From Caenimonas sp. SL110 (GTDB lineage: Bacteria; Pseudomonadota; Gammaproteobacteria; Burkholderiales; Burkholderiaceae_C): DNA of 64,000 nucleotides. The stretch is from the NCBI RefSeq assembly GCF_001044395.1, contig NZ_JANU01000002.1:158386-222385 (forward strand), in the 5' to 3' direction. Position numbers and translations under genes: made by a program. The first letter of the stretch is position 1. Each line of letters begins with the position of its first letter. The notes beneath the pieces are model-generated. The model was given only the letters and a program-made list of their open reading frames with translations, did no database searches and was not told the origin of the DNA. This document shows positions 1,018-19,587 of the stretch, one piece after another.

Positions 1018-1025
1018 GGCACCAA
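1018..1025. repeat. Left 8-bp target-site duplication of the transposon
   Basis: GGCACCAA here is repeated exactly at 19580-19587, immediately outside the two inverted repeats. An 8-bp duplication is the size known for IS1595-family elements. The flanking match extends to 14 bp (ACACCC + GGCACCAA) because the right inverted repeat itself ends in ACACCC. The symmetry of the repeats favours 8 bp as the true duplication. Confidence 0.88.
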
Positions 1026-1051
1026 GGGTGTTAATCAGCTGATGGCCCAAA
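1026..1051 (+). repeat. Left terminal inverted repeat (26 bp)
   Basis: Begins GGGTGTTAATCAGCTG and ends GATGGCCCAAA (the two strings overlap at the G). The reverse complement of 19554-19579 matches it at 25 of 26 positions. Similarity stops inside position 1051. GGG at the tip fits IS1595-type ends. Confidence 0.9.
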
Positions 1052-1237
1052 AAGAGCTGGAACCCGCGCCGGATAAGGGTTCCCAGCCATTTTGCCGGCG
1101 CGGCCTAGAGTTGTTTTGGAAGAATTAGAGGGGTGCAACTGCGGGGACCCCCGCCCCTCCGGCCGCGAGCCCTGCCCCGGGCGGGCCTAACCCGGCGGCG
1201 TCGCAGTGCAGCTAGATTGTCGGTGCTCGAGCTCGGA
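1052..1237. other. Non-coding left end of transposon
   Basis: This 186-bp stretch lies between the left inverted repeat and the stop codon of the AlbA/Schlafen-type gene. It is very GC-rich. It contains an interrupted inverted repeat (CTGGAACCC ... GGGTTCCCAG, about 1057-1086) that could be a weak terminator for the leftward operon or a subterminal transposase site. No convincing gene is present. Confidence 0.4.
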
Positions 1238-2404
1238 CTAGTCGTCGGCGGCGTTGAGCGCGGTGTCCGCGGCGAGCTGCTGCAGGCCGGGAAAGTCCAC
1301 TCGCCGGTGCTCAACTTCAACCTCAATGACAGCCTGGAGGGTGACGGGTGCTTGGTCCGCCGCAAGTAAACGGGCCTCGACCTTAAGGGTGCCACTCTTG
1401 GGCGGGAAGAAGGCCAGTACATGGTCACTCGTGAGATGCTCGCTAGGCAGCAGTTTTTCAAATCGCCACACGGCCATGGGGCGGCCACTCACTAGGTCAA
1501 TTGAGAGTTCCTTCTCCCACTTCGCAATCTGCTGCTGATGCATTAGCGTGTGCGCGCCGGTAAGGAAGTGGTCTGGGTTGGGCCTTTTTTCGAACTTAAA
1601 GTACTGCAACATGGGAACTTCCACGCCTTCGACCTCCGCTTTGACTTCCAACTTGCCGTGATTCAACGCGTAGGGAGATGAGTTCTGCAATTCGAATCGA
1701 ACCAAAACAGCACCGGCCTGCTCGCGCGCGAAGGTTGCGAAGTCGCGCCAATAGGAACTGTTAACCATTGTGACCACCAGATACGCATTGCGCGGGGCCT
1801 TATGGTCAGGCAGTTTCTTTATGTCCCCGAAATCCAAAGCTACGCGTTTCTCGATGTACTCGGAACTAAACGGTAGCCCCATCAGGTCCAGAAGCCTGAA
1901 GGCTGCGCAGCTACTGGCTGCGCGGCCCTGGTCGTCGTCCCGCATGCGCATTACTTCCAAAGGGTCGGCTTCTCCTGTGGAGCTCCCGCGTCGCACAAGG
2001 ACCACATTGGGGCGCACCACTCCGTACTCTTTTTCAACCCAGAAGGGTCGCGACTGCTTCGGGACGGTTATGACCCCGACTTGCTTCCCCTCGTACTCAA
2101 GCTCCTCATACGTGAACGTGAGGTTTGGGCGTACTTTGCTGCCAATGAACTGCTGAATTTGCGCGTCGTCGAGGTGCTCGTCTAGGCCAACGACCTGAGG
2201 CGGGCCGCCCGCGCACTCCTGGAAACCCAACAGGATATAAGCCGGGCCCCCCCCTTGGCGCCAAGCGTTGGCCATGGCCAGAATGTCTTTCAGCAGCTCC
2301 GACTTCTGCTTCGGGTCTTTCGACAGGAAGTGGTACCGCCGTTTGAAGTCCAACCCGGGCCCTTCCGATTCGTAGCGGAGGCGGTCTAGTAACTCTTTTT
2401 GCAT
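1238..2404 (-). CDS. AlbA_2/Schlafen-type ATP-binding protein linked to type I R-M
   Basis: The start is set at 2404, where ATG overlaps the hsdR stop (TAATG); this suggests translational coupling. The 388-aa product begins with an AlbA_2/Schlafen AAA_4-like domain: GPGLDFKRRY near residue 17, then AYILLGF and VVGLDEHLDD, and the NLTFTYEELEYEGKQVGVI strands. The C-terminal half is not recognised. Proteins of this type often sit beside type I restriction genes and some have nucleic-acid-related or defence roles; the role here is inferred. It is the last gene of the six-gene leftward operon. A longer start at 2440 would add 12 residues overlapping hsdR. Confidence 0.75.
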   Translation of the reverse strand: MQKELLDRLRYESEGPGLDFKRRYHFLSKDPKQKSELLKDILAMANAWRQGGGPAYILLGFQECAGGPPQVVGLDEHLDDAQIQQFIGSKVRPNLTFTYEELEYEGKQVGVITVPKQSRPFWVEKEYGVVRPNVVLVRRGSSTGEADPLEVMRMRDDDQGRAASSCAAFRLLDLMGLPFSSEYIEKRVALDFGDIKKLPDHKAPRNAYLVVTMVNSSYWRDFATFAREQAGAVLVRFELQNSSPYALNHGKLEVKAEVEGVEVPMLQYFKFEKRPNPDHFLTGAHTLMHQQQIAKWEKELSIDLVSGRPMAVWRFEKLLPSEHLTSDHVLAFFPPKSGTLKVEARLLAADQAPVTLQAVIEVEVEHRRVDFPGLQQLAADTALNAADD

Positions 2405-5400
2405 TAGAGAGACGCCCCCGGCTGCTGAAATTGCTTCCAAACCATCCTCGCCACCATCTTCTGCATCACGCCGAAGATGCGTTCGTCTTTGAGCAACTGG
2501 TCAGCGATGTTGTTGTGCGCGTCCTGTGCCTCGATGACGATGTCAGTGAAGGCGTCCTTGAAGTCGCCCATCGCGAACTGCTCTTCGTTGTTGTTTCGAG
2601 CCTGGGCGGCCAGCTTCTCGTTCTTGGCCAAGTGCCCCTGCCATGTGGTTACCGCGCCGACGAAGTCAGACTCCGTGATATGCCCCGAGAACAGGTCGTT
2701 CATCTTGGCCACAATCTCGCGCAGCGCCTTTCTCTCGTCCTCCGGGGCGGCGCCGGTCCCGGCCTCGCCTATGCCGGGCAGCTTTACCACTTCGCCCGAG
2801 GCCAGGTCCAGCTGTTGCTCGCCCACCTTCTGCAGGCGGTAGTGCGTCAGGTTGACGTCGGAGTCCAGCTCCAGCTTGTTCCGGTCCTTCATGTCCGCGG
2901 CGAGGCGCGGCATCAGGTACTTGCCGAACACAAACAGCTTCTCCAGCTCCGGGTCGTCGTAGGGGATGATTTGCGACAGGAACTCGTACAGGCGCAGGAA
3001 GGAGCCAAGGTCCTTGCGGAAGAGGTCCTTCTGCTCATCGGCCTCCAGCGCTTGGTATCGGTCGAAGGCCGGCTTCAGGACAGCGTGCAGCGGCCCCTGG
3101 CTCTTGACCTTGGGGTTGAAGAATGCCTCCGAAAACTTCTCCACCTCGGTCCAGTAGTAGACGCCGACCTTGTTCAGCTTTGTGAGCAACTCGTGGACGA
3201 TATTGGGGTCGGTGACTTCCTCAAGCTGGGCCGTGCGGTAGTAGGGCTGGAAGCTCTCGAGGATTTCTGCCGGCCGGTTGACGAAATCCAGAATGAACGT
3301 GTCTTCCTTGCCCGGGTACATGCGGTTCAGCCGGGACAGGGTCTGCACGGCGAGCACGCCGGAGAGGCGCTTGTCGACGTACATCGTGTGCAGCAGGGGC
3401 TGGTCGAAGCCGACCTGGTACTTGTTGGCCACCAGCAGGATACGGTACTCGTCCTGCTTGAACGCCTCGGAGGGCTCCTGGCCCTTGATGCCGGGGTTCA
3501 TGTTGGATTCAGTGAATTCGTCGGGTCCTGAATCGGGGTCAGTCACCGCGCCGGAGAAAGCGACCAGCGTACGCAGGTCGGTGTAACGCTGGTCCTTGAT
3601 GTATTTGTCGATGGCCAGCTTGTAGCGGACGGCGGCCTTGCGACTGTCGGTGACCACCATGGCCTTGGCCTGGCCACCAATCTTGGCAGCGACATGCTCG
3701 CGGAAGTGCTCGACGATGACGACGACCTTCTGGGAGATGTTGTGTGGATGCAGCTTGGCGAACTGGGCCAGGGCCATCTTGGCGCGCTTCTGGGGCACCA
3801 GCTTCTCGTTGGCGAGGGCTCCCAGCTGGTAGAAAGTGGAGTAGCTGGTGTAGTGCTTGAGCACGTCCAGGATGAACCCCTCCTCGATGGCTTGGCGCAT
3901 CGAATAGACGTGGAATGGCACCGGAGTGCCTTCCGGGCCCTTGCGCCCGAACAGTTCCAGGGTCTTGGACTTCGGCGTGGCTGTAAACGCAAAATAGCTG
4001 ACGTTTTCGGGACGCTTGCGGCCCTCAATGGCCAGTGCAATCATGTCCTCGGAGGTCAGGTCTTCTGGGTCGATTTCGACATCCGCTTGGACCTGTACCT
4101 CCACGCCGTCAATGACCACAACGGCCGTCTGTTTCGGCTTGCCCTTGGTCAGCGCCTCCCGCAGCTTGCGCGCGGCGGCGCCGCTTTGACTTGAGTGCGC
4201 TTCGTCCACGATGAGGGCGAAGTTGCGTTGACCGAGCGCGCCGACCTGGTCCAGGATGAACCCGAACTTCTGCAGTGTGGTCACTACGATGGGCGCGCCC
4301 TCGTTCAGGGCCTTTGCCAACTGAGCGCTGTTTTCGCTGATGACCTGCACCACGCCGGCCTTGTGCTCGAACTGACTGATGGTGTCCTGCAGCTGCTTGT
4401 CCAGGACGCGCCGGTCGGTGACAACCACCACGGTGTCAAAGACCTTTTTGTCCGCAGAGTCGTGGAGGTTCGAGAGCCGGTGCGCCGTCCAGGCGATGGA
4501 GTTTGACTTGCCGGAGCCGGCGGAATGCTGGACCAGGTAGTCCTTGCCTGGGCCTTCGAGGGCAGCCATGCGAATCAGCTCCTGCACTACAACCAGCTGG
4601 TGGAAGCGCGGGAAGATGATGGATTCCTTCGTGGCTTTCTTGCCGCCGGGCAGCTCGACTTCCTTGGTTTCCAGATGCATGAACTCGCCAAGGACTTCCA
4701 GCCAAACCTCCGGGCGCCACACGTATTCCCACAGGTAGTAGGTGGAGTAGCCCTTGTCGTAGGGCGCAGCCGGGTTGCCCGCGCCGGCGCTCAGCATGTC
4801 AATGCTGTCGGGGCGGCCCATGTTGAAGGGCAGGAAGTGGGTGTCTTCGCCGGCCAGCTTGGTTGTCGTGAATACCATGTCGCAGGACACAGCGAAATGA
4901 ACCAGCGCCCGGGTCTTGAACTGCAGCAGGGGCTCCAGCTCTTTGGATTTTGCGTCTTTAGGCAGCCGGTCGGTCTTGTACTGCGTGATGGCGTCCTGAA
5001 TGTTCTGGGTCAGGTCCGTTTTGAGCTCACCGGTGGCAACGGGCAGACCGTTTACGAACAGCACCAGGTCAATGCTCTTCTCGTTGTGCAGGCTGTAGTG
5101 CAGCTGGCGCACGGCAGTCAGCCGGTTCTTCTTGAAGAGGTCCAGCAGCTTGCGATTCTTCTTGTGGGCCGGCTTGAACTGGCACAGGTAGAACTTGGCG
5201 TCCACGTCCTTGAAGCCATGGCGAAGAAGGTGGAGCGTACCGTGGGTGTCCAGCTGCTTGGCCACGCGCTTGATAAACATGGCTTCGGACTGGCCGTTGT
5301 GCCACCGCTTGAACTTGGCCCACTCGGTGGGCTGGGTCTCCTGCACGAATGCGAGCAGGTCTTCGGCCAGGATGGCGTACTCCTTGGAGTAGCTCGCCGC

Positions 5401-5505
5401 CTGCTTCGGGTGGGTTTTGACCGACCAGCCATTGGCTTCGAGCTGGGCGCACAGCTCGTTCTCGAAGACGCGCTCGGTGTGCACGTTGGAGGTGGTCGGC
5501 ATCAT
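2404..5505 (-). CDS. hsdR: Type I restriction enzyme, R (motor/nuclease) subunit
   Basis: 1033 aa, normal size for HsdR. The N-terminal nuclease of PD-(D/E)xK type shows D146 and E160-L-K162. The superfamily 2 helicase/translocase follows with Walker A SAGSGKS (328-334), DEAH (434-437) and the FTATP motif. It uses ATP to move DNA and cleaves unmethylated DNA together with HsdM and HsdS. The start codon overlaps the stop of the upstream small membrane-protein gene (ATGA), and its own stop overlaps the next start, so it is tightly embedded in the operon. All motifs are intact. Confidence 0.97.
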   Translation of the reverse strand: MMPTTSNVHTERVFENELCAQLEANGWSVKTHPKQAASYSKEYAILAEDLLAFVQETQPTEWAKFKRWHNGQSEAMFIKRVAKQLDTHGTLHLLRHGFKDVDAKFYLCQFKPAHKKNRKLLDLFKKNRLTAVRQLHYSLHNEKSIDLVLFVNGLPVATGELKTDLTQNIQDAITQYKTDRLPKDAKSKELEPLLQFKTRALVHFAVSCDMVFTTTKLAGEDTHFLPFNMGRPDSIDMLSAGAGNPAAPYDKGYSTYYLWEYVWRPEVWLEVLGEFMHLETKEVELPGGKKATKESIIFPRFHQLVVVQELIRMAALEGPGKDYLVQHSAGSGKSNSIAWTAHRLSNLHDSADKKVFDTVVVVTDRRVLDKQLQDTISQFEHKAGVVQVISENSAQLAKALNEGAPIVVTTLQKFGFILDQVGALGQRNFALIVDEAHSSQSGAAARKLREALTKGKPKQTAVVVIDGVEVQVQADVEIDPEDLTSEDMIALAIEGRKRPENVSYFAFTATPKSKTLELFGRKGPEGTPVPFHVYSMRQAIEEGFILDVLKHYTSYSTFYQLGALANEKLVPQKRAKMALAQFAKLHPHNISQKVVVIVEHFREHVAAKIGGQAKAMVVTDSRKAAVRYKLAIDKYIKDQRYTDLRTLVAFSGAVTDPDSGPDEFTESNMNPGIKGQEPSEAFKQDEYRILLVANKYQVGFDQPLLHTMYVDKRLSGVLAVQTLSRLNRMYPGKEDTFILDFVNRPAEILESFQPYYRTAQLEEVTDPNIVHELLTKLNKVGVYYWTEVEKFSEAFFNPKVKSQGPLHAVLKPAFDRYQALEADEQKDLFRKDLGSFLRLYEFLSQIIPYDDPELEKLFVFGKYLMPRLAADMKDRNKLELDSDVNLTHYRLQKVGEQQLDLASGEVVKLPGIGEAGTGAAPEDERKALREIVAKMNDLFSGHITESDFVGAVTTWQGHLAKNEKLAAQARNNNEEQFAMGDFKDAFTDIVIEAQDAHNNIADQLLKDERIFGVMQKMVARMVWKQFQQPGASL

Positions 5506-5825
5506 TCAATCCCGTGTTTCTTCGCGAAGCGAATGACCGACCACCAGGAATACAAGGTGAAGAGACCGGCGAGTCCAAGGCCGCCGGTGACCAGATATGC
5601 CACCGTGGGGCGCAATTGCACTGACATTGGGCCGAGGATGGCATTGCCACCCAGGGTGTCGAGGAAGCTGGCTACTGCGGCACTCAGCCCGAAGCCGACA
5701 AGCAGCACCAAGAGGCCTACCCAAACGCGCAACTGCTTCGACTTCCATTCCGCGGTCAGCGGGTCGTCGTGTCGGTCGTGGCGCAGTTCAGCGAAGTAGT
5801 TCAGGATGTTCAATAGGTGGTGCAA
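5502..5825 (-). CDS. Small two-helix membrane protein inside the hsd operon
   Basis: 107 aa starting at a TTG codon, supported by AGGAG seven bases upstream. A charged N-terminus (residues 1-32) is followed by two clear membrane helices (about 34-58 and 72-95) and a short basic tail, IRFAKKHGIE. I do not recognise a family. It lies between hsdS and hsdR, an unusual place for a membrane protein, and overlaps the hsdR start by 4 bp. It might tether or regulate the restriction complex at the membrane, or simply be a passenger. That is inference. Confidence 0.7.
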   Translation of the reverse strand: MHHLLNILNYFAELRHDRHDDPLTAEWKSKQLRVWVGLLVLLVGFGLSAAVASFLDTLGGNAILGPMSVQLRPTVAYLVTGGLGLAGLFTLYSWWSVIRFAKKHGIE

Positions 5826-5868: not shown

Positions 5869-7194
5869 TCAAGACGGCAAGCGCTGCTCACCTTTGGTCT
5901 TGCGGTCGTCCAGGGCCAGTTCACCGGTGACCGCAGCTGAAATCAGGGAGGAGCGGTACTCGCGCAGGCGCTCAATGTGTTCCTGTGCGTGTTGCACCAG
6001 TTCTTGCACGCGAGATGTAGCCGAACGAACTTGCTTCAGGAGGGCACATCGCTCTGCCGCGGGCGGCATGGGTACTGGGAGCTCGCGCACGTTCGACTGG
6101 TTAATGGAAGCCAAGTTGGTGCTCTGCTTCGACCGGAGGAAGAAATAGCTGCGGGCCGCGTCCGTGGACGTAAACCGTGCAACCCACTCAGCGAGGTCCA
6201 AGTCGTTCAGGCGCACGGCGAACACGTGGTTCTGGTGAATGCACGGGTGGATTTGGCCCTGCCAAACTGTGCCGCGACCGAGCTTGTCGTTGTCGCCGCC
6301 TTCGTTCATGAGGACGTCGCCAACGCGCAGCAAGTAGCGCTGCGCTTCGGCCTCTGCTACTTCGATGCTGTGCACCTCGGTCAGGTCAACGTAGCCGTCT
6401 TGCACATTCGCCACGCGCAGGTATGGCAGCGCGACGGTGGATTTCTCGCCGATGTCTTTGCCTTTCGCAACACCGGACCTGACTTCACCAAGGAACTTCA
6501 GGCGCTTTACCTCCCAGTGCGTCGGAATGCTGCCCAACTCCGGGAAGCTGGTCTTCTGCAGCTTGACGCCGGCACTCGCACCTTGCGTCATCAGGGCCGA
6601 GGCGTGGCTGTAGAGGTATTCCAGCAGTTTCCCAATCAGCCCTTCTTTCTCTGCAATCAACGCATCAATCCGCGCCGTTTTGTCGTCAAGGAAGTTGGCG
6701 ATGCGATGCTGGTCATTCGGAGGAGGAACAGCCAAAGGAAGCGTGCCCAGGAGAGTTGGGTTGATTGCGGGATAGCTCACGCCATCTGAGTTCGCCACCA
6801 CGTTTTCAATAAATGGCTCTGCAAGAGCCGCCCAGTAAGCGAACCGGGGGCTCAACTGGCCATTCGGTCTAAGTACGGCGAATCCTGTGGACGCAATGAG
6901 ATTCGTGTTCACCGCTGGGAAGGAAGCAACCGCTTTGAGGTAGGTGCGGACTGTTGACAAAATCGTGTCGCCAGAACGCAAAACTCTTCGCGCTCGACTC
7001 GGTGCGGATTCGAAGTTGACTTCTGTGGGTGCGAGTTCCGCCACGCCGTTTTCCAAGGCGGCGATGTCCACGTATGACAAGACTGTTTCAGGCGGAGTAC
7101 TGTCCGGAAGCACTTCCGGATTGATTTGTACCGCGTGCTTGAGTGGCACAGTCCGCCATCCAGTGGGCAGGTTCGAGTAGTTGCCTTGGCTCAA
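5869..7194 (-). CDS. hsdS: Type I restriction-modification specificity subunit S
   Basis: 441 aa with the usual two target-recognition halves. Each half starts with a W-R or W-E core (GWRTVPLKHAVQI near residue 12; THWEVKRLKFLGEV near 225) and ends in a conserved helix (DDKTARIDALIAEKEGLIGKL; QEHIERLREYRSSLISAAVTGEL). It chooses the DNA sequence that the methylase and nuclease act on. The start is TTG, which overlaps the hsdM stop (TTGA); no ATG is near, so translation is probably coupled to hsdM. The gene is intact. Confidence 0.93.
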   Translation of the reverse strand: MSQGNYSNLPTGWRTVPLKHAVQINPEVLPDSTPPETVLSYVDIAALENGVAELAPTEVNFESAPSRARRVLRSGDTILSTVRTYLKAVASFPAVNTNLIASTGFAVLRPNGQLSPRFAYWAALAEPFIENVVANSDGVSYPAINPTLLGTLPLAVPPPNDQHRIANFLDDKTARIDALIAEKEGLIGKLLEYLYSHASALMTQGASAGVKLQKTSFPELGSIPTHWEVKRLKFLGEVRSGVAKGKDIGEKSTVALPYLRVANVQDGYVDLTEVHSIEVAEAEAQRYLLRVGDVLMNEGGDNDKLGRGTVWQGQIHPCIHQNHVFAVRLNDLDLAEWVARFTSTDAARSYFFLRSKQSTNLASINQSNVRELPVPMPPAAERCALLKQVRSATSRVQELVQHAQEHIERLREYRSSLISAAVTGELALDDRKTKGEQRLPS

Positions 7195-9008
7195 GCCACC
7201 ACCCCCTTCATAAGCTCCACAAAACGCTTCTCCATTTCGAGAATCTCATCGGCAATCACCTTGGGCTTGCGCGGCGCCTTGTAGACGTAGAAGTACCGGT
7301 TGAAGTTGATTTCATAGCCGACCTTCCCGACCAGGCCGTCCGCATCATCCTTGACGTCCTTGTTCACCCAGGCGTCCGGCACGTGCGGCAGCACCTCTCG
7401 CTTGAAGTAGGCCGGAATGGACTCGGTGAGCGGGATGGTTTCGGTGTCGCGCAGGTCCTTGTCGTACGGCTTCTCGCCTTTCTTGAACTTGCCTTCCTTG
7501 CCATCGGCCAGGGGGCGGTCTACGGTGACCTTGCGGTACCCGAAGAACTTGGTGTCAAAGAGCTTCGACACGATGCGAGGCGGCTCGGCCTCGGCCGGCG
7601 CGGCGCCATGGCCGTTCTTCACCGCCTCCTTGAACTCCAGGGAGAACGTCGCATCCTTGGCGCACGTGGAGTACACCTTCACGATTTCGGCAATCTGCTC
7701 GTCCGAAATTTGGACGCGCTTGCTGCCAAGGGACTTCTTCATCTTGGAATACATGCGCGTGGCATCAATCAGCTGGACCTTGCCTCTGCGGTCGGCCTTC
7801 TTGTGGTTATCCAGAATCCAGATGTAGGTGGCGATTCCCGTGTTGTAGAACAAGTCGTTCGGCAGCGCGATGATGGCGTCGAGCATGTCGTTCTCGAGCA
7901 CCCAGCGCCGAATTTCAGACTCGCCAGAGCCGGCGTCACCCGTAAACAGGGGCGAGCCGTTGAGGACAATGCCGACGCGCCCGCCGCCCTCAGCTGCTGG
8001 GCGCATCTTGGAAATCAGGTGCATCAGGAACAGCAGGGAGCCGTCAGAAATGCGGGGGAGCCCTGGGCCGAAGCGGCCGGCGAATCCCTTTTTCTCGTGC
8101 TCCAACTTGACCGCATCCAATACCTTCTTCCAGTCCACGCCAAAAGGAGGATTGGCCGCGCCATAGTCGAACTTTTCGCCGGGGAAACCGTCTGCAGACA
8201 GGGTGTTGCCGCACACGATGTTTTTGGGGTCCTGCCCCTTGATGAGCATGTCTGCTTTGCAAATGGCGTAAGACTCAGGGTTCAACTCCTGGCCAAAAAG
8301 GCGAACAACCGCGGAACTGTTGATGGACCGGGCGACGGCCTCACCGACTGACAGGATGCCGCCGGTACCGGCGGTGGGGTCGTACATCGACCGGACGACG
8401 CCAGGCTTCGAGAGTGCCTCGTCGTCGCCGGCGAACAGGCAATGGACGATGAGCTGGATGACTTCGCGAGGAGTGAAGTGCTCACCGGCGGTCTCGTTGG
8501 AGGCCTCCGCGAACTTTCGAATCAGCTCCTCGAAAACCAGGCCCATGGTTTCGTTGGGAACAACGTCCGGGTGCAGGTCGATGTTGGCGAACTTTTGCAC
8601 CAGCTGAAACAGCAGGTCCTTGTCTTCGAGCTCGGCGACCCGGTCGGTGAACTTAAAGCGCTCGAACACGTCGCGGGCGTCTTCGGAGAACTCGCCCAGG
8701 TAGGCGACCAGGTTCTGGCGAATGTGCTTCTGGTCGGCCAGCAGGCCCGGCAGCGTGAAGGCACTGGTGTTGTAGAACGCTTCCTTGCTCTTGCGCTTCA
8801 GGAACGGGTCCAGGTTGACACCGCTCTCCTTGCGCTTGGCATGCTCGGCCAACACGTCCTTCTTCGTTCCCTCGAGAACGCAGTCCAGCCGGCGCAGCAG
8901 CGTGAAAGGCAGGATGACCTTGCCGTAGTCGGATTGCTTGTAGTCGCCCCGGAGCAGGTCGGCGACGGACCAGAGGAAGTTGGCGAGTTCGGAGAAGTTC
9001 TGGGCCAT
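7191..9008 (-). CDS. hsdM: Type I restriction-modification DNA adenine methylase
   Basis: 605 aa. The N-terminal HsdM helical domain (SELANFLWSVADLLRG) leads into an N6-adenine methyltransferase with AdoMet motif DPTAGTGG (210-217) and catalytic motif NPPF (286-289). It methylates host sites and, with HsdS, forms the core of the restriction complex. It is the second gene of the operon, 9 bp after the small ribbon-helix-helix gene, and overlaps hsdS by 4 bp. Full length and all motifs are present. Confidence 0.97.
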   Translation of the reverse strand: MAQNFSELANFLWSVADLLRGDYKQSDYGKVILPFTLLRRLDCVLEGTKKDVLAEHAKRKESGVNLDPFLKRKSKEAFYNTSAFTLPGLLADQKHIRQNLVAYLGEFSEDARDVFERFKFTDRVAELEDKDLLFQLVQKFANIDLHPDVVPNETMGLVFEELIRKFAEASNETAGEHFTPREVIQLIVHCLFAGDDEALSKPGVVRSMYDPTAGTGGILSVGEAVARSINSSAVVRLFGQELNPESYAICKADMLIKGQDPKNIVCGNTLSADGFPGEKFDYGAANPPFGVDWKKVLDAVKLEHEKKGFAGRFGPGLPRISDGSLLFLMHLISKMRPAAEGGGRVGIVLNGSPLFTGDAGSGESEIRRWVLENDMLDAIIALPNDLFYNTGIATYIWILDNHKKADRRGKVQLIDATRMYSKMKKSLGSKRVQISDEQIAEIVKVYSTCAKDATFSLEFKEAVKNGHGAAPAEAEPPRIVSKLFDTKFFGYRKVTVDRPLADGKEGKFKKGEKPYDKDLRDTETIPLTESIPAYFKREVLPHVPDAWVNKDVKDDADGLVGKVGYEINFNRYFYVYKAPRKPKVIADEILEMEKRFVELMKGVVA

Positions 9009-12240: not shown

Positions 12241-12269
12241 TTGCCGCCGTAGCTGTATGCCCGTACAGT
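12241..12269 (+). promoter_or_regulatory. Promoter with LexA (SOS) box for the LexA-like/transposase operon
   Basis: A candidate -35 TTGCCG (12241-12246) and -10 TACAGT (12264-12269) are spaced by 17 bp. The perfect SOS consensus CTGT-N8-ACAG (CTGTATGCCCGTACAG, 12253-12268) covers the spacer and -10. Repressor bound there would block the polymerase. The box is 37 bp upstream of the LexA-like start codon. Either the element's own LexA-like protein or the host LexA could bind. Confidence 0.75.
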
Positions 12270-12305
12270 ATCTCCAACGAACAAACATTCGCCGGAGAAA
12301 ACGAG

Positions 12306-12899: not shown

Positions 12900-13033
12900 C
12901 CACCCGCAGCCCCTACCCCAGGCCGTAAGGCCCCCACCAGCAGCTGAACGCGGTCTCCGCCCCGAGGCCGGTGGCGCAGCTTTGCCCAAAACCATTGAAA
13001 GCCGCCTGGCCGCACCAGGCGCAAGGAGAAGCC

Positions 13034-13411
13034 ATGCCTGTTTGGAACATTGAATCGATTGAGGACAGACCGGACGTCACGCTCAGCGACTGGGCGGCGT
13101 TTGAAGTTCCGCTGAACGGCCCGGACCAGCCCTGGACGCGCCACCTGGCCGGATGGTCGCGCGAAGACTGTCAGGGGCAAGTCTGCTCCGCGGTGCAGCG
13201 GTTCGACCCTGTGACGGGCAGCTGCCTCACGGAGAGCGGCCGGGTGTACCGGCTCCACGGCCGGCCAGGTATGACCGCGGACGCGCAATACGTCTGGAGC
13301 CGCTGGAAGCGCATCGCCTCCGTCACCGAGCAGCGAAACGTGACGCAGGAGACCTTCGAGGCGATTCAGGCTGCCAAGGCCCCAAGCGCTGCGCCGGAGC
13401 CACTCCCATGA
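13034..13411 (+). CDS. Small unknown protein, paralogue of 15744-16076
   Basis: 125 aa. The start is chosen at 13034, preceded by AAGGAG. Its first ~95 residues match the 110-aa product at 15744-16076 along their length: shared features include PWTRHL, GQV, FDP and SGRVYxL, with W at similar positions. The family is unknown to me. A copy on each side of the 99-aa, 242-aa and transposase genes suggests a duplicated accessory function, perhaps in transposition or its control, which is inference. It is 134 bp downstream of the LexA-like gene. Confidence 0.7.
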   Translation: MPVWNIESIEDRPDVTLSDWAAFEVPLNGPDQPWTRHLAGWSREDCQGQVCSAVQRFDPVTGSCLTESGRVYRLHGRPGMTADAQYVWSRWKRIASVTEQRNVTQETFEAIQAAKAPSAAPEPLP

Positions 13412-13484: not shown

Positions 13485-13784
13485 ATGAAAGTCAAGGTCA
13501 GAACGATGCGTCACGAGGGGCGAAACCTCAACCGCGACGACTTGAAGAAGCTCCCTCCGCGGGTTGGCGAGCTGCGCGTGCTCGAGGAGCGCGACCCCGC
13601 CCTGGGCCGGCAGGTGCTGCGCGCGCGGCTCCTGGATATGACTCGCGGCACGGAGCACGACATTCTTCCTGGCCTGATGGACGCCCGCCTGGTCTGGGCT
13701 GCCGACGGCAAGATGACCCTCATCGGCACCGAGCGCCTCGACCGCGCCGAGTACGGCCAGACCTGGTCGGTGGAGGTTGGCTGA
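13485..13784 (+). CDS. Small unknown protein in transposase operon
   Basis: 99 aa, basic N-terminal third (VKVRTMRHEGRNLNRDDLKKLPP) and a strand-rich C-terminal half. No family recognised. Its stop overlaps the start of the 242-aa gene (TGATG), which in turn leads directly into the transposase, so the three are probably translated as one unit. Confidence 0.65.
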   Translation: MKVKVRTMRHEGRNLNRDDLKKLPPRVGELRVLEERDPALGRQVLRARLLDMTRGTEHDILPGLMDARLVWAADGKMTLIGTERLDRAEYGQTWSVEVG

Positions 13785-14512
13785 TGCTCAAAGTCTTCGT
13801 CCACACCGGCGTGCTCGAGGAACGCAACCCCGGCAACCAACTGGCCATGCTGGACATCGCCTACGCCAAGAAGTCGTACATGGCCGACTACCAGTGCGCG
13901 CTCCTCGCCAAAAGCCACGGCGAGCTGAACTACGCAACCCCGCAGGACGAGCCGGACAGCCACACCTTCGTCCTGCAGTACCCGCGGTGGTCCGGCAGCC
14001 TGTGGGACTTGGTAGCCCGCGCCCTGACCCGAGCCCTGTACCGCGCCGACCAGGCGCCAGCCGTGAAGCGCGTCGACCGCCGCTGCGCATACGCTACTCG
14101 CCTGTGCGTGGCCATCCAGCAGGCCACCCTGGACAACCAGGGCCTCGAACTGGCGACGGGCACGATTACGCAGACCGGCAAGGAGCGCGGCTTCTACACC
14201 GTCAACCTTGAAGAAGACATTCTTGGGCGTCACAGCGCCACGTTCGCCTACGGTGAGAAGACCCTGAACCCCTCGGACCTGGTGCTGCGCGCCATCTGCT
14301 GGTCGCTCTTCAACCAGGACACCCTGGGCCGCCGGCCCGCGCTCATCCTGCCGCCGGCCATCAGGGTCGACGGCGTAGAGCGCTTCGACATCGAAAACCT
14401 GACGGAGCCCGCGCGCACGGGCTTCAACCGCTTCCGCGCGCCGGCCGGCACCGCGATGATGGAGGCAATGCCGTTGGCCGCGGACTACGTGCGCTTCCTC
14501 ACTGCAGGTTGA
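13784..14512 (+). CDS. Unknown protein (242 aa) directly upstream of the transposase
   Basis: The ATG overlaps the preceding stop (TGATG), and its own stop is 2 bp before the transposase ATG. No signal peptide, membrane helix or recognised motif. Composition is that of a soluble globular protein with Trp and Tyr spread throughout. Tight coupling to the transposase suggests a transposition-accessory or target-selection role, but nothing in the sequence proves it. Confidence 0.7.
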   Translation: MLKVFVHTGVLEERNPGNQLAMLDIAYAKKSYMADYQCALLAKSHGELNYATPQDEPDSHTFVLQYPRWSGSLWDLVARALTRALYRADQAPAVKRVDRRCAYATRLCVAIQQATLDNQGLELATGTITQTGKERGFYTVNLEEDILGRHSATFAYGEKTLNPSDLVLRAICWSLFNQDTLGRRPALILPPAIRVDGVERFDIENLTEPARTGFNRFRAPAGTAMMEAMPLAADYVRFLTAG

Positions 14513-14514
14513 CC

Positions 14515-15732
14515 ATGAGCGCCCCCGCGTCCTCCCCCTTTAAGCCGCTTCCAATTCGCAAGCGGACGGGCACGGCGGCCTTCCATCTGAGCAAGAAGGC
14601 GGTCGACTTCGGCCAGGAAGACCTGGCCAAGCTGTCCGAGAAGCAGGCGGTGCTCCTGCTCGCGGAGCTGACCTGGGGCTCGACCACCGAGATGCCCTGT
14701 GCGCATTGCGGGACCGTGGACACCCACTATTTCTCGGTCAAGGAGCTGCGCTGGAAGTGCAAGTGCTGCGGCAAGCGGTTCTCCGTGACGTCCGGCACGG
14801 TGCTCGCTGACCACAAGTTGTCGCTGAAGAAGATTCTGTGCATGGCCTTCACCTGGGCCAATGGCGCTTCCGGGCTGCCGGCGCTGCAGCTGCGCCGCGA
14901 GTGGAACGTCGCGTATGGGACGGCATTCACCTTGGTGCAGAAGCTGCGCGAAGGGCTCGTGCGCGGATTCAACGTGGGCCTACTGGCCGGCGTGCACGAG
15001 ATGGACGGCATGGACATCAATGGCCGCCGGTACCGAGAAAAGCGCGGCAAGCCCCTCGGTGGCAAAAGTGGCCCGACCCCAAAGATTCCGTCCTTCCTGC
15101 TGAAGCCGAAGCCTGGCGAGGAGCCCCATGGCCCGCCCACTCCGCCGAAGTGGGGCAAGGCTTCCAAGCAGCCGGTGGACCGCCGCCTGGTGCTCGCAAT
15201 GGTGCAGCGAGGTCAGAGCCTTGGCTTGGGCGCGGTGTCGACCCGTATTGGAATCGCCAAGACCGAGTCCGGGGCCACCGTGACGACCATGGCCATGCGC
15301 CACGCCTCCGCCGAATCGGCCTTCATGACCGACGAGGACCCGTCGTACGCATCATTTGGCACGCTGTTCGCCAAGCACGACACCATCAATCACTCCGAGA
15401 GCTACAGCCGGCCGGGCGGCATCAGCAACAACCTGGCCGAGAGCTTGAACGCTCGCATGCGACGTGGCGCCGAGGGCGTCTACCTGAACCAGAGCAACAA
15501 GTACACGCACGACTACTCGTGCGAGCAGGCCTGGCGCCAGGACACCCGCAAGCTCTCAACCGGCAAGAAGCTGAGGCATCTGCTGCGGGTGGCGCTATCG
15601 GTGGGCCTGTCGAAGTGGTGGCGTGGCTACTACCAGGGGGTACACCGGGACCACGAGATGCTGCTCGAGGGCAATGCACCGGCCAAGGGTCGCGGCAGGC
15701 CAGAGGGCTGGAAGCCGAAGCCGCCGCGATAG
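14515..15732 (+). CDS. IS1595-family (ISXO2-like) transposase
   Basis: 405 aa from ATG 14515. An N-terminal zinc ribbon (C62-x2-C65 and C82-x2-C85, within PCAHCG and CKCCGKRFS) precedes a DDE-type domain: D164 in HEMDGMDINGRR, D273 in FMTDEDPSY, and N306 with E309 in NNLAESLNARMRRGAEGVY. The last motif aligns position by position with the family pattern N-x2-E-x7-R-G-x3-GVY. Later residues SNKYTHDYSCEQAW match the family's S.KHL..Y..EF region. It has an extra loop of about 45 residues after the first Asp and a basic Pro-rich tail. It is the only transposase in the element and is intact. Confidence 0.93.
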   Translation: MSAPASSPFKPLPIRKRTGTAAFHLSKKAVDFGQEDLAKLSEKQAVLLLAELTWGSTTEMPCAHCGTVDTHYFSVKELRWKCKCCGKRFSVTSGTVLADHKLSLKKILCMAFTWANGASGLPALQLRREWNVAYGTAFTLVQKLREGLVRGFNVGLLAGVHEMDGMDINGRRYREKRGKPLGGKSGPTPKIPSFLLKPKPGEEPHGPPTPPKWGKASKQPVDRRLVLAMVQRGQSLGLGAVSTRIGIAKTESGATVTTMAMRHASAESAFMTDEDPSYASFGTLFAKHDTINHSESYSRPGGISNNLAESLNARMRRGAEGVYLNQSNKYTHDYSCEQAWRQDTRKLSTGKKLRHLLRVALSVGLSKWWRGYYQGVHRDHEMLLEGNAPAKGRGRPEGWKPKPPR

Positions 15733-15743
15733 GAGAACCGCAC

Positions 15744-16076
15744 ATGACATGGCGCATCGACCGCATCGAACAGGAACCCACCAAGACGCTGGACGCCTGG
15801 ATGGTCATGGAGGTGCCGTTTGACGGTCCAGGGCGGCCTTGGACGCGCCACCTGGTGGGCTGGCGGCTGGAGGGGTGTAAGGGGCAAGTGAGCTCACCGG
15901 TGGAGGTGTTCGACCCTGCTACGCGGCGGGCGAAGACCCGCAGCGGGCGGGTCTACCAGTTGGGCGAGCGGTCAGGGCTCAGTGGAGCCGCGTTTGCTGC
16001 CTGGGGCGTGTGGAAGCGCCGGCATGGAGTGCTGGAAGAGCGCGACGCCACTGACGACGTTGGCCCGCTCACCTAA
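15744..16076 (+). CDS. Small unknown protein, paralogue of 13034-13411
   Basis: 110 aa; ATG at 15744 has AGGAGA eight bases upstream. Similar throughout to the product of 13034-13411 (PWTRHLVGW, KGQV, FDPATR, SGRVYQL). It follows the transposase by 11 bp and so probably belongs to the same operon. The two copies have diverged considerably, suggesting an old duplication kept by selection. Function unknown. Confidence 0.7.
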   Translation: MTWRIDRIEQEPTKTLDAWMVMEVPFDGPGRPWTRHLVGWRLEGCKGQVSSPVEVFDPATRRAKTRSGRVYQLGERSGLSGAAFAAWGVWKRRHGVLEERDATDDVGPLT

Positions 16077-16077: not shown

Positions 16078-16860
16078 TTAGTCCACTTCGGGCGCACGGA
16101 CAACAGTTCCATCGGCAAAGGCGATGGACTCTATTTCGAAGCGACTCTTAATGGTGCTGCCATTCGCGTCAGCAATGCGCTCAATGTAGTCTCGGCCCGT
16201 TCTCGTTACGTGCCAAGCTGACCCGCGGTCTGTCTGCACTACCTTTCCAGGCTCGAGCCGGTCGTCAAAGTCCACCAGCAAGCTGCCGACTTCATCGCCA
16301 ACCGCATCGGTCACATACACGACACCTTTAAGCTGGACAATTGCCTGCTTCGACTTGTTCTCGAGGCCAAACTTCAGCACAAGCAAATCAAAGGGGCGAG
16401 CTTCTCGAAAGTCCCGTTCGACTACCCGCTTCTCCAGCAATGTGACCGTCGCTGATTCGGTCAGCTGGTCGAGAATTGCCTTTCGTTCCGCTTGGGCCCT
16501 CTTTCGCAGGTCTGCCTCCTTCGCCTCCTGCACGGCACGAGCCTCCGCCAACGCTTTGCGCTTGGTTTCCCACAAGCGGGCGAGCTCAATCGCTTCCCCG
16601 ACGGTTTTTCCCACCAGGGGCGTCCTGTCGGGGCCCCCCTCAATGTTCGGCATGCCCAAAGCTGCCGACGCCTCGCGAGCCATGAGGTAGCGTGCGAGCA
16701 AGTCACGGTCTTGGTCAGGGAGCTTGCGCACGAGCTCAACGTTCTCACTCATTGTTTTCAGAGGGTCACTGCCAAATACGATGTCTGTCGGTTGCGAACA
16801 GGCCGCCAATGCAATCGCCATGGAGATGGCGGCAAGGGGGCGATAAAAGCGTGAGGTCAT
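16078..16860 (-). CDS. Lipoprotein with coiled-coil segment, unknown function
   Basis: 260 aa. Signal peptide ends in lipobox LAAC (Cys 21). Residues ~95-140 are a charged Ala/Glu/Lys-rich stretch (KRKALAEARAVQEAKEADLRKRAQAERKAIL) likely to be coiled coil. The C-terminal ~110 residues are strand-rich (LVLKFGLENKSKQAIVQLKGVVYVTDAVGDEVGSL), resembling immunoglobulin-like lipoprotein domains. It converges on the transposase operon with a 1-bp gap. No exact family assigned. Confidence 0.7.
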   Translation of the reverse strand: MTSRFYRPLAAISMAIALAACSQPTDIVFGSDPLKTMSENVELVRKLPDQDRDLLARYLMAREASAALGMPNIEGGPDRTPLVGKTVGEAIELARLWETKRKALAEARAVQEAKEADLRKRAQAERKAILDQLTESATVTLLEKRVVERDFREARPFDLLVLKFGLENKSKQAIVQLKGVVYVTDAVGDEVGSLLVDFDDRLEPGKVVQTDRGSAWHVTRTGRDYIERIADANGSTIKSRFEIESIAFADGTVVRAPEVD

Positions 16861-16917
16861 GTCAGGGTCCAGAATCTTGATAGCTCGTATAGCGGAGCAG
16901 AGTTACCCTACCCGCTG

Positions 16918-16953
16918 CATGCCTCCGCGCCGCGGCGGACCTCACGTCCTGGC
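16918..16953 (+). repeat. Internal repeat unit A of the transposon
   Basis: About 36-44 bp closely similar to 17510-17553. Both share CATGCC, then CCGCGCCGCGGCGG (with the palindrome CGCCGCGGCG), then C-x-TCAC, CCTGG and CTGC at the same spacing, apart from one inserted base. This copy lies 58 bp upstream of the 260-aa lipoprotein gene. Confidence 0.5.
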
Positions 16954-17001
16954 AGCCTGCATTCTTTCGCTGCCGAGAACCATGGGAGCGTCGCGAAGCT
17001 T

Positions 17002-17478: not shown

Positions 17479-17509
17479 GCCCTGTGTAGCCAGCGTCCGC
17501 TACACGCCA

Positions 17510-17553
17510 CATGCCCCGCGCCGCGGCGGCCTTCACTCCCTGGAATTCTGCCT
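17510..17553 (+). repeat. Internal repeat unit B of the transposon
   Basis: Second copy of the repeat at 16918-16953. It overlaps the first codons of the longer version of the 167-aa frame, which suggests those codons are not protein coding and that the gene starts at TTG 17553. Confidence 0.5.
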
Positions 17554-18014
17554 TGAAAACACGTTCTCTTATTGCAGCTCTCGCGTCGACCTTGTTGACG
17601 GCGGGTTGCGCCCACACCCCCGCCCAGATGTCAATGGACGCCGAGCTACTACGCAGGTGCGCAGAAGACGGTGGTGTACGGGTGTACGAGCGCGCCGAGC
17701 GGCCGAGCCCCAGCTTTAGAGTGACCCTGCGAAAGTCCCGTCCCAATGCCCCTTACTACCTTGAACTTGAGGAGCAAGTGCTGAAGGAGAGCGAGGGAAC
17801 TCCGATTACGGGGCAATACCGCTTCACTCGGTTGCACGAGAGGGTGATTCGAGCTACTGACGGTGCACTCCTAGGCGAGTCGGTCGCGTACGTTCGTTTT
17901 GGCGGAGACCTTGCCAATCCGTTCCATCCCACTGGAAAGGCGTGCCCACGATTGGGCGCCCATATGAGCCTCGACGAGCAGGTCCTTGGGCCTGTTTACC
18001 GCGCGTCGAAATAG
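17511..18014 (+). CDS. Small lipoprotein, unknown function
   Basis: Up to 167 aa. The lipoprotein signal KTRSLIAALASTLLTAGC (Cys at 32 of the long form) is normal in size only if translation starts at TTG 17553, giving 153 aa. The first 14 codons from ATG 17511 coincide with a DNA repeat found also at 16918. The mature part has no recognised domain. Third lipoprotein of the element. Confidence 0.6.
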   Translation: MPRAAAAFTPWNSALKTRSLIAALASTLLTAGCAHTPAQMSMDAELLRRCAEDGGVRVYERAERPSPSFRVTLRKSRPNAPYYLELEEQVLKESEGTPITGQYRFTRLHERVIRATDGALLGESVAYVRFGGDLANPFHPTGKACPRLGAHMSLDEQVLGPVYRASK

Positions 18015-18024
18015 CGCCGCTGCG

Positions 18025-18339
18025 TCACGGTGATAGGTGCACCTTGACGTACTTCCCTACAGCGCGCAGCGTGAACTTCCGCCCATACGGCTTCAGCCAT
18101 TCCTGAATCGCGCCAATCGAGGCCGGGTCAAGCTCCGGGTCAAACACCCGTAGCGTCGTGTGCAGCGCCTCCCTCCGTCCGAGCAGCGCCAGGCGCCTGG
18201 CTTCCAGTACTTTCCGCCCCTGCTTCCGGAACCGCAGCGCCCAGTCGACGAACTCCAGCTCGCCGTGCACGTTTGCAATCATTCGGCACAGGGAGGTCAG
18301 CGCTGTCTGGGTGCGCGTGCGGGTCATGGTGAGAGCCAT
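18025..18339 (-). CDS. Small basic protein at the end of the right-end cassette
   Basis: 104 aa from ATG 18339, which overlaps the stop of the upstream gene (TGATG). Rich in Arg, Lys and Leu, mostly helical, with a basic C-terminal segment (KPYGRKFTLRAVGKYVKVHL). It could bind nucleic acid. No family recognised. A frame extending to 18408 is open but would overlap the preceding gene. Confidence 0.6.
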   Translation of the reverse strand: MALTMTRTRTQTALTSLCRMIANVHGELEFVDWALRFRKQGRKVLEARRLALLGRREALHTTLRVFDPELDPASIGAIQEWLKPYGRKFTLRAVGKYVKVHLSP

Positions 18340-18869
18340 CAGCGGGCCTCGGCCTGGCGCGCGGCGCGCCGAACTACATCCATGCTGGGAGCCGCCTTCC
18401 ACCGCCACACGCCGACAGAGCCCGCGGCCGCCTTGGTGTCGTGCACGCGCTCGACCTCCCCGAAGTCCAGCATCGCGCGCAATGCCCGAGTGAGCGCATT
18501 CTTGCGAAACCGGTCCCGCTCCCGGTAGGACGCAAAGTGCAGGTCGAAGGTCTCCTCGGCCAGGCGGACCATGGTCGGAGTGTCGACCGCCGCCGGCGCC
18601 GCTTCCTTGAGAAGACGCCGGAGCCAGTTGCGCAGGACGCCGCGGCCTCCGTACTGCTCCTGGGCCCGCACCGGGGACACGAGACCTTCCAGGCCGGGGG
18701 CGTGGCTCAGAGCGCCGACCTCGACCAGGGCCTTCCGGACTTTCTCCAGGTGCGACCGTCGCGCGGCCAGGCGGATGAGCTCCTCGTCAATCCGCTCCAG
18801 CTCACCCACGGTTGCTGCCAGCTCGTTGGCCACCCACTTCAGGCCGGACGGGGTCCGCTGCCTGGTCAT
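18339..18869 (-). CDS. Coiled-coil protein, paralogue of the gene upstream
   Basis: 176 aa from ATG 18869. Residues ~1-45 form a probable helix or coiled coil (ELAATVGELERIDEELIRLAARRSHLEKV). The C-terminal ~100 residues match the 215-aa upstream product: YGxRGxxR, LLKxAAP, an FxL segment, a basic RxxRKN/RRN helix, VER and WRWxxAP. The fold may be a winged helix with a basic recognition helix. Function is unknown. Start and stop overlap both neighbours. Confidence 0.6.
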   Translation of the reverse strand: MTRQRTPSGLKWVANELAATVGELERIDEELIRLAARRSHLEKVRKALVEVGALSHAPGLEGLVSPVRAQEQYGGRGVLRNWLRRLLKEAAPAAVDTPTMVRLAEETFDLHFASYRERDRFRKNALTRALRAMLDFGEVERVHDTKAAAGSVGVWRWKAAPSMDVVRRAARQAEAR

Positions 18870-19449
18870 GGGCGGCCTCCTCCGCCAAGGCAGATAGAGT
18901 GGGAGCGCCGCGCCAACGCCACAGCAGCGCACCCGACGGCAATTGGCCGGGAAGTCGCTCTACGCGAGCATGCTCCTGGGTGAGCAACCGCCGTAGGTTT
19001 CTCCGTATGGTTTCCTTTTGGCTTCGCGTCGGCAGGTACAACCCAAACTCGACGACGACAGCCTCGTACAGAACGGCCGAGGAAAGCTCCTGGGGCGCTG
19101 CGGACTTGAGCATGCCGAGGACAAATTGGCGAAAGGCGCCACGCTCCCCATACTTGCCGGCCCAGGTCGCCACGACGCCTCCCGCTGCGGGGTTCACGGT
19201 CGGGCTCGCGAGCTTGAGGGTGACGTCCAGGGCGCGGACTGATAGGCGGTAGCCGGCTTGACGCTCCTGCGCAGTCGCGAGCTGCCTCCCGAGCATTCGG
19301 GCCTTGCGCTGCGCAGCTTCGGCTCGCCTGGCCAACTCTGGGATGACCGTATCCATCCGCGCCAGCTCGCCCAGAAGGGCTGCGCGCTCGTTGAGGAGGT
19401 ACTTGAGGACTGGCGGGGTTCGCTCTCGCCGAGGGATTTGTTCTGGCAC
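18802..19449 (-). CDS. Coiled-coil protein, first of two tandem paralogues at the right end
   Basis: 215 aa with a GTG start. Residues ~15-65 look like coiled coil (NERAALLGELARMDTVIPELARRAEAAQRKARML). The C-terminal domain matches the next gene (KYGERGAFR, MLKSAAP, RRNLRRLL, VERL, WRWRGAPT). Its 3' end overlaps the following gene by 68 bp. It is the outermost gene at the right end, 105 bp from the inverted repeat, a position where element-maintenance proteins could be expected, but no function can be assigned. Confidence 0.6.
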   Translation of the reverse strand: MPEQIPRRERTPPVLKYLLNERAALLGELARMDTVIPELARRAEAAQRKARMLGRQLATAQERQAGYRLSVRALDVTLKLASPTVNPAAGGVVATWAGKYGERGAFRQFVLGMLKSAAPQELSSAVLYEAVVVEFGLYLPTRSQKETIRRNLRRLLTQEHARVERLPGQLPSGALLWRWRGAPTLSALAEEAAHDQAADPVRPEVGGQRAGSNRG

Positions 19450-19499
19450 TTCGATAGCTCATGTCGTCACGGTATCGAAGTGAAGGGACCTCACAAGCT

Positions 19500-19535
19500 A
19501 AAAAGCCGCCCTTCAACCCCGAAGAACGGCTTTTC
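19500..19535. terminator. Bidirectional hairpin terminator inside the right end
   Basis: AAAAGCCG (19501-19508) pairs with CGGCTTTT (19527-19534); the inner CTTC/GAAG also pairs. A and T runs on both sides allow function in both directions. It may protect the element from read-through of the neighbouring operon. Confidence 0.65.
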
Positions 19536-19553
19536 TGGCGCCTCAGCCTGAGG

Positions 19554-19579
19554 TTTGGGCCATCAGCTGAATAACACCC
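19554..19579 (-). repeat. Right terminal inverted repeat (26 bp)
   Basis: TTTGGGCCATCAGC...TAACACCC is the inverted match of 1026-1051, with a single mismatch (T at 19571, its complement A being the ninth base of neither exact pair). Confidence 0.9.
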
Positions 19580-19587
19580 GGCACCAA
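19580..19587. repeat. Right 8-bp target-site duplication
   Basis: GGCACCAA, identical to 1018-1025. Its final As are part of the T-tract (read on the minus strand) of the host terminator at 19585-19613. Confidence 0.88.

What the first reader, a model, noticed from the sequence alone, without database searches (positions are those of the whole stretch)
1018..19587. An 18.5-kb IS1595-family transposon that carries a full type I restriction system and its own LexA-like regulator
Seen: 26-bp inverted repeats (25/26 identical) at 1026 and 19579, a perfect 8-bp direct repeat outside them, one intact ISXO2-like transposase inside, and about 18 other intact genes. Known: IS1595-family elements make 8-bp duplications, and some carry a few passenger genes. 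As I recall, these reach only several kilobases. A unit this large with hsdMSR would be a defence-carrying transposon of a kind I do not know to be described. The match of duplication size to transposase family is independent support.
Basis: partly seen in the sequence, partly recalled or inferred. Interest (0 to 1): 0.95.

Follow-up and report, generated by a model that had tools for sequence, protein, structure and literature searches.

The report
Defence-carrying transposon at transcription terminators
An 18.6-kb mobile element carries a predicted three-gene restriction system against foreign DNA, and it and its eleven fully bounded relatives each sit right beside a predicted transcription-stop signal, so they likely home to places where landing breaks no gene.

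Summary
In detail: 26-bp inverted repeats (25/26), a perfect 8-bp duplication, an intact IS1595-type transposase, open hsdM, hsdS and hsdR, and a LexA-like gene. It is not a one-off: twelve two-ended elements (window included; 964 bp to 25.6 kb) have twelve different perfect 8-bp duplications. One has an empty site in four genomes with 95-97% identical flanks; at the window's own site only the right half could be shown. Cargo differs: type I RM here; CBASS, HaeIII-type RM, PifA-like or JetD-like genes elsewhere; one relative carries metabolic genes. orf242 beside the transposase and a winged-helix/coiled-coil gene at one end recur. (2) A perfect SOS box, the only one in 64 kb, lies 37 bp before the LexA-like gene; 5 of 9 loci with that gene have it exactly, 2 with one mismatch. 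Targeting and SOS control are inferred; nothing was tested at the bench.

The parts
1018..1025 (.). left copy of 8-bp target duplication GGCACCAA
1026..1051 (+). left 26-bp terminal inverted repeat
1238..2440 (-). SLFN/AlbA_2 protein (cargo; PADLOC candidate PDC-S50); a relative in L006 also follows an hsdR piece
2404..5505 (-). hsdR, type I restriction subunit (cargo)
5502..5825 (-). 107-aa frame between hsdS and hsdR, hydrophobic stretch by eye, not scanned against families
5869..7194 (-). hsdS, type I specificity subunit (cargo)
7191..9008 (-). hsdM, type I methyltransferase (cargo)
9018..9233 (-). 71-aa frame just before hsdM, not scanned against families
9411..9830 (+). 139-aa frame with a lipoprotein-like start (read by eye; no Pfam match)
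9889..10854 (-). 321-aa protein, no match in Pfam, PADLOC or NCBIfam
11624..12169 (-). 181-aa frame, no Pfam match, uncertain gene
12253..12268 (+). SOS (LexA) box CTGTATGCCCGTACAG, only CTGTN8ACAG in the 64-kb window
12278..12291 (+). second conserved palindrome-like motif CGAACAAACATTCG before the LexA-like gene (possible own operator)
12306..12899 (+). LexA-like S24 protein; A-G cleavage site and Ser/Lys residues kept in 7 of 7 aligned proteins, window included (residue roles recalled)
12971..13411 (+). orf146, paralogue of orf113; flanks the core
13485..13784 (+). orf99, backbone gene found by tblastn in 10 of 13 loci, window included
13784..14512 (+). orf242, backbone gene in 13 of 13 loci, window included; confident model, no PDB match at E 0.001
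14509..15732 (+). IS1595-type DDE transposase (zinc ribbon; invariant D166, D275, E311 read by me as the catalytic triad)
15735..16076 (+). orf113, paralogue of orf146
16078..16860 (-). 260-aa frame with a lipoprotein-like start, unknown
17511..18014 (+). 167-aa frame with a lipoprotein-like start; 31 N-terminal residues similar in the G026 element
18339..18932 (-). orf197, paralogue of orf215
18802..19449 (-). orf215, predicted coiled coil plus winged helix; a gene of this family lies inside the same end in 12 of 13 loci, window included
19554..19579 (-). right 26-bp terminal inverted repeat
19580..19587 (.). right copy of 8-bp target duplication
19592..19613 (-). terminator-like hairpin with T tract running into the target site; outside the element
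19779..21110 (-). host histidine kinase gene whose downstream terminator-like hairpin marks the site

Best explanation
Positions 1018-19587 hold an 18,554-bp IS1595-type cargo transposon, one of a family whose twelve two-ended copies all lie beside a predicted transcription terminator, and it likely moves by its own DDE transposase, which would target such terminators and be held in check by SOS/LexA-type control. Shown by sequence: ends, 8-bp duplications, transposase domains, differing cargo, one empty site, the position 4-8 nt past a hairpin stem in 12 of 12 two-ended elements, and the SOS box. Inferred: the transposase, helped by orf242, orf99 and the winged-helix/coiled-coil proteins at the right end, binds the 26-bp ends and joins them with an 8-bp stagger just 3' of the T tract of an intrinsic terminator, perhaps by reading the hairpin or paused RNA polymerase. 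Such a site breaks no gene and leaves the terminator whole. Inferred: DNA damage would cleave host LexA and the element's LexA-like protein, raise that protein's gene and the orf146-orf99-orf242-tnp-orf113 run behind it, and so favour movement. The type I restriction genes, if active, would protect host and element from phages.
For: Ends and duplications: 12 elements, each with a perfect and different 8-bp repeat (GGCACCAA, TCCAGAAG, TTTGCAGT, CGCCTGCG, TTTGGCGA, CGCACCAT, TCTGGCTA, TTGGGGCG, GTGCTCGC, CGAGCCAA, GCCAGTAA, ATGGAAGG). Empty site: for the 25.6-kb G443 element, 5 of 29 loci examined span the joined flanks, 4 of them at 95-97% identity over 1.5 kb; three of the four read the exact target CGCACCAT once, the fourth TGCACCAA. 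Terminators: 10 of 10 elements used to set the rule, against 279 of 33,781 flank positions (0.83%) and 254 of 12,212 intergenic positions (2.1%); then G592 and G773, found after the rule was fixed, 2 of 2; the window's hairpin is also among 25 listed by an independent scanner. Three small distant IS1595 elements: 0 of 3. SOS box: 1 match in 64 kb, 37 bp before the S24 gene; same box before S24 in G026, G451, G443 and G165, with one mismatch in G237 and L078; the host lexA gene has the same box type. LexA kinship: E 1.4e-15 to LexA, HTH included. Linkage: orf242 in 13 of 13 loci; 32 contig lengths are shared between the 120 listed transposase hits and the 120 listed orf242 hits.
Against: The terminator rule was written after seeing 10 sites; only 2 are held out. 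Of 7 single-ended copies, where one flank is visible, only 1 (G155) shows the hairpin. In two-ended copies the hairpin is on the orf215 side in 5 and on the other side in 7 (my reading), so there is no fixed orientation. My coding mask for the intergenic control is crude. In the tree G592 and G773 fall, under midpoint rooting, on the side of the small non-terminator elements, so the large elements are not shown to be one clade. The S24 gene and SOS box are not universal: S24 is found in 8 of 13 loci; L005 and L006, and the later G592 and G773, have no S24 hit and no exact box; G197 and the distant G570 have an S24 gene with no box even at one mismatch. The element's LexA recognition helix differs from the host's (helix recalled), so it may read another operator. 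In clade II a gene on the other strand lies between S24 and orf99, so one transcript is not general. The promoter scan found none in the region. No transposition, binding or phage assay exists.
Confidence: 0.8

Rival explanations
1. A real transposon family that inserts without target choice; only copies landing in harmless gene ends survive, so terminators are seen by selection.
For: Terminators mark gene ends, and purifying selection is general. Only two elements are held out, and 6 of 7 single-ended copies show no hairpin on the visible side.
Against: The spacing from stem to target is 4-8 nt in 12 of 12, while only 2.1% of intergenic positions meet the rule. Even if a quarter of harmless positions met it, 10 of 10 would have odds near 1e-6. 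Small IS1595 elements gave 0 of 3.
Confidence: 0.1
2. The LexA-like protein and SOS box serve the cargo or only themselves, and the transposase is not SOS-controlled.
For: Clade II has an opposite-strand gene between S24 and orf99; some elements have the transposase but no S24. No promoter was mapped; the sigma-70 scan found none in the region.
Against: In the window S24, orf146, orf99, orf242, tnp and orf113 run in one direction with gaps of 2-73 bp or overlaps of 1-4 bp, and S24 lies on the same side of orf99, orf242 and tnp in the 8 loci that have it.
Confidence: 0.3
3. An integrative conjugative or mobilisable element, prophage remnant or patchwork defence island in which the repeats are accidental.
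For: Size and restriction cargo are usual for such islands (general knowledge; no call).
Against: No integrase, relaxase, phage or Tns family matched any of 19 window proteins (17 of the element, 2 flanking) in Pfam; no tRNA in the window; ends and duplications recur in 12 elements with different cargo.
Confidence: 0.02

Closest known systems
IS1595 family insertion sequences (groups ISPna2, ISH4, IS1016, IS1595, ISSod11, ISNwi, ISNha5; Siguier, Gagnevin and Chandler 2009, not held and not read)
   Same: zinc-ribbon plus DDE_Tnp_IS1595 transposase and 8-bp duplications, as listed in PMC8101967 (passages seen)
   Different: that paper says a single transposase gene; here up to 25.6 kb, recurring accessory genes, differing and often defence cargo, and terminator sites. 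That some IS1595 elements carry passenger genes is recalled
Tn7-like transposons
   Same: large defence-rich cargo and insertion at chosen harmless places; known innate immune systems are carried by 26% of them (PMC8649781, passages seen)
   Different: an IS1595-type transposase instead of a TnsABC machine; no Tns family match; 8-bp duplications and many different terminators rather than one site (5-bp duplications and the glmS site of Tn7 recalled)
TnGBS / p-MULT Mutator-type elements
   Same: DDE elements that target a transcription signal at fixed distance: 15-17 bases before the -35 of sigmaA promoters (PMC3942029, passages seen)
   Different: other transposase superfamily, and promoters rather than terminators
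Bacterial group IIC introns (recalled, nothing read)
   Same: recalled to insert after intrinsic terminators
   Different: retroelements, not DDE DNA transposons with cargo
ISCR elements under LexA control
   Same: LexA acts on the transposase promoter (PMC13393415, abstract and outline seen)
   Different: the abstract names the SOS repressor LexA of the cell; here a LexA-like gene is carried by the element

Membership tests
IS1595 family | DDE_Tnp_IS1595 domain (PF12762) / NF033547 | tested here: met
   E 2.3e-21; 76.6 bits v cut-off 75
IS1595 family | N-terminal zinc ribbon (PF12760) | tested here: met
   E 2.1e-6, 28.0 v cut-off 25.4 bits
IS1595 family | 8-bp target duplication | tested here: met
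   window and 11 relatives, all perfect
IS1595 family | ends starting with GG (stated for the related Merlin elements, PMC8101967) | tested here: met
   GGG in 20 of 20 ends of the first ten elements; the distant G592 and G773 ends start CGCT instead
IS1595 family | single transposase gene (IS in the strict sense) | tested here: not met
   18,554 bp with 17 named frames; it is a transposon with this transposase, not an IS
IS1595 family | placement in a named ISfinder group | not testable with these tools
   ISfinder sequences are not on hand
Tn7-like transposons | TnsA/TnsB/TnsC proteins | tested here: not met
   no such family among 19 window proteins scanned at E 0.01
Type I restriction-modification system | HsdM, HsdS and HsdR together | tested here: met
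   Pfam and PADLOC matches for all three, frames open
LexA repressor | LexA-type HTH plus S24 domain with self-cleavage residues | tested here: met
   S24 E 2.3e-25; LexA_DNA_bind E 8.6e-4 but 19.5 v cut-off 23.7 bits; aligns to LexA along both domains; residues kept in 7 of 7 (roles recalled)
LexA repressor | passes the LexA equivalog cut-off TIGR00498 | tested here: not met
   110.3 v 110.95 bits; the host's own lexA passes with 223.9. So LexA-like, not host LexA

The most novel reading that the evidence does not exclude
A family of terminator-homing defence transposons: an IS1595-type transposase with its own accessory proteins recognises intrinsic terminators of any gene, drops exchangeable anti-phage cargo a few bases past the stem without harming host genes, and is released by DNA damage through a carried LexA relative. 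This would be a second, independently evolved answer to the problem that Tn7 solves with one safe site.
Probability: 0.5. Interest if true: 0.93.

Novelty: new variant of a known kind. Interest (0 to 1): 0.87.

Why it matters
It would explain how whole defence systems move between bacterial chromosomes without plasmid, phage or Tn7 machinery, and could help explain why defence genes pile up at gene ends. The ends and duplications let cargo be cut out of genomes exactly, so unknown genes between them become defence candidates. A transposase that reads terminators would also be a testable case of structure- or transcription-coupled target choice and a possible tool for harmless insertion.
Full report
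WHAT IS THERE. Inverted repeats of 26 bp (25 identical) at 1026-1051 and 19554-19579 enclose 18,554 bp, with GGCACCAA on both outer sides. Twenty Markov-1 resamples of the window gave no pair of comparable quality. Inside are an IS1595-type transposase (invariant D166, D275 and E311, read by me as the DDE triad), open hsdM, hsdS and hsdR, an SLFN/AlbA_2 gene, a LexA-like gene and about a dozen frames without a family name. GC content of 1-kb slices inside is 0.57-0.68; the window mean is 0.64.

IT IS A FAMILY. With the transposase as query, 3 of 99 relatives (own genome included, E 1e-40) and 7 of 399 genomes of the family (own included, E 1e-60) have it. An alignment query added 5 distant ones in 399 genomes of the order and none in 397 of the phylum (E 1e-60, own aside). 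Around these transposases I looked for ends. Eight elements on single contigs had ends of the same kind and perfect, different 8-bp repeats: window 18,554 bp; G026 12,833; G237 5,062; G197 12,222; G165 9,478; G443 25,588; L005 6,605; L006 11,839. A search for the end pattern in 60 same-genus genomes hit 9, with 2 for the reversed control. It showed that the G044 element is split over two contigs, whose outer edges carry the same GTGCTCGC, and a 964-bp transposase-less copy in G022 with CGAGCCAA on both sides. Two more distant large elements with other ends (CGCTATG...) came later: G592, 18,991 bp, and G773, 14,257 bp. That is 12 elements and 12 different target repeats. For G443, 29 loci from its genus were examined: 5 span the joined flanks, 4 at 95-97% and one at 80% identity; the rest differ beyond the site. 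Three of the four read the exact target CGCACCAT once and the fourth TGCACCAA. For the window only the right half can be checked: it aligns in 24 of 29 relatives' loci, 23 of which run on without the element end.

BACKBONE AND CARGO. In 13 loci with the transposase, window included, orf242 is found in 13, orf99 in 10, an S24 gene in 8 and a member of the orf197/orf215 family inside the same end in 12 (G044, G155, G451, L007 and L008 are cut by contig ends). orf242 has a confident model (mean pLDDT 89) without a PDB match at E 0.001. orf215 is predicted as a long coiled coil with a winged helix. Cargo differs: type I RM plus SLFN in the window; CBASS genes (phospholipase, DncV-like cyclase, E1-E2) in G026; a HaeIII-type enzyme with a C5 methylase in G155, whose element is cut by the contig end; a helicase-nuclease of the PDC-S37/Hhe kind in G443, whose length also includes inverted pairs of two IS-like gene sets; a PifA-like KAP NTPase and a JAB protein in G592; a JetD-like gene with a 1,544-aa neighbour in G773; a Fic protein in G197 (E 3e-10 to SoFic); an hsdR remnant and SLFN in L006. 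Against a pure defence story, G044 carries a GntR-aminotransferase regulator, an FMN-binding protein and a LysE exporter, the one cargo gene tested in G165 and in L005 gave no PADLOC match, and one G237 frame gave no Pfam match. Window and G026 share 89% of the S24 protein but 59% of the transposase, so backbones look like mosaics.

TARGET SITES. Printing the 10 then-known sites showed a hairpin beside each. A first strict measure (perfect stem edge -4 to 8 nt from the target) held for 8 of 10; L005 has an imperfect stem and in L006 the stem runs into the target. I then set a rule: stem of at least 6 pairs with at least 5 G-C and at most one G-T, loop 3-8, then 4-10 nt that are T-rich, then the target. 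All 10 meet it, with best-scoring spacing of 4-8 nt; 279 of 33,781 flank positions (0.83%) and 254 of 12,212 intergenic positions (2.1%) do. The rule was made after the fact, but G592 and G773 were found afterwards and both meet it, with spacings of 7 and 4 nt. Three small IS1595 elements from viral contigs with good ends and duplications do not (0 of 3); their transposases lie in a group of 7 with full support. Under midpoint rooting, which is for drawing only, G592 and G773 fall on that group's side of the tree, so one origin of targeting is neither shown nor excluded. In the window the hairpin at 19613-19592 on the minus strand lies downstream of the histidine kinase gene and is kept in relatives without the element. 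Of 7 copies with one visible flank, 1 shows the hairpin; in two-ended copies it is on one side only, so part of these misses is expected, but they are not positive evidence.

CONTROL. CTGT-N8-ACAG occurs once in the 64-kb window, 37 bp before the LexA-like gene; 0.65 are expected by chance. The meaning comes from recurrence. Of 9 loci with an S24 gene whose upstream DNA is held, 5 have the exact box (window, G026, G451, G443, G165), 2 have it with one mismatch (G237; L078) and 2 do not (G197, G570). The host lexA promoter has the same box type and the host LexA keeps the E. coli-like recognition helix, while the element's protein does not (helix assignment recalled). A second motif, CGAA-N4-CATTCG, sits between box and start codon: exact in window, G197, G443 and G451, one mismatch in G026, two in G165 and, elsewhere upstream, in G237. 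My reading, untested: host LexA reads the box, the element's protein reads the second motif, and DNA damage lifts both. L005, L006, G592 and G773 lack both gene and exact box, so this control is not needed for membership.

WHAT IS KNOWN. IS1595 elements are described as usually having 8-bp duplications, a single transposase gene and, apart from the IS1016 group, a zinc finger (PMC8101967, passages). Known innate immune systems are carried by 26% of Tn7-like transposons (PMC8649781, passages). Promoter targeting by Mutator-type DDE elements is described (PMC3942029, passages), as is LexA control of ISCR transposases (PMC13393415, abstract). Among the papers listed by my ten searches of the open-access library, some lists capped, I saw none on large IS1595 defence transposons or on terminator targeting by IS1595 elements; subscription papers and ISfinder were out of reach.

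VERDICT. Mobility is inferred from duplications and one empty site; targeting and regulation are inferred from sequence.

Noticed in passing
L083:8804-12116: A small IS1595 element whose target lies in the loop of a long inverted repeat (read by eye), so another IS1595 lineage may also prefer hairpins.
   Followed up: no
window:13576-13599, 13809-13832 and 16027-16050: orf99, orf242 and orf113 share a 24-nt repeat coding for VLEER(D/N); copied segment or shared motif.
   Followed up: no
window:12971-13411 and 15735-16076: Paralogous genes orf146 and orf113 flank orf99-orf242-tnp here and in G026; a similar-looking frame lies beside S24 in G443 (by eye).
   Followed up: partly
G022:C175:6190-7153 (L105): 964-bp transposase-less copy in which the only matched element gene is one of the orf215 kind.
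   Followed up: partly
G443 element (L027, L028, L062): Two IS-like gene sets each present as identical inverted pairs inside one 25.6-kb element, which could allow internal inversions.
   Followed up: no
window:9411-9830, 16078-16860, 17511-18014: Three small frames with lipoprotein-like starts lie among the cargo and could be surface or exclusion factors.
   Followed up: no
window:12278-12291: CGAA-N4-CATTCG motif between SOS box and start of the LexA-like gene in most elements that carry the gene; possible own operator.
   Followed up: partly
L078/L147 (IMGVR_UViG_2775506897_000002): A contig filed as viral carries the same backbone (S24, orf99, orf242, tnp, orf215-like), cut at the contig end.
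   Followed up: partly
L031:12160-19835 (G155): A contig-cut element pairs a HaeIII-type restriction enzyme and C5 methylase with a WYL regulator and a T5orf172-domain protein.
   Followed up: partly
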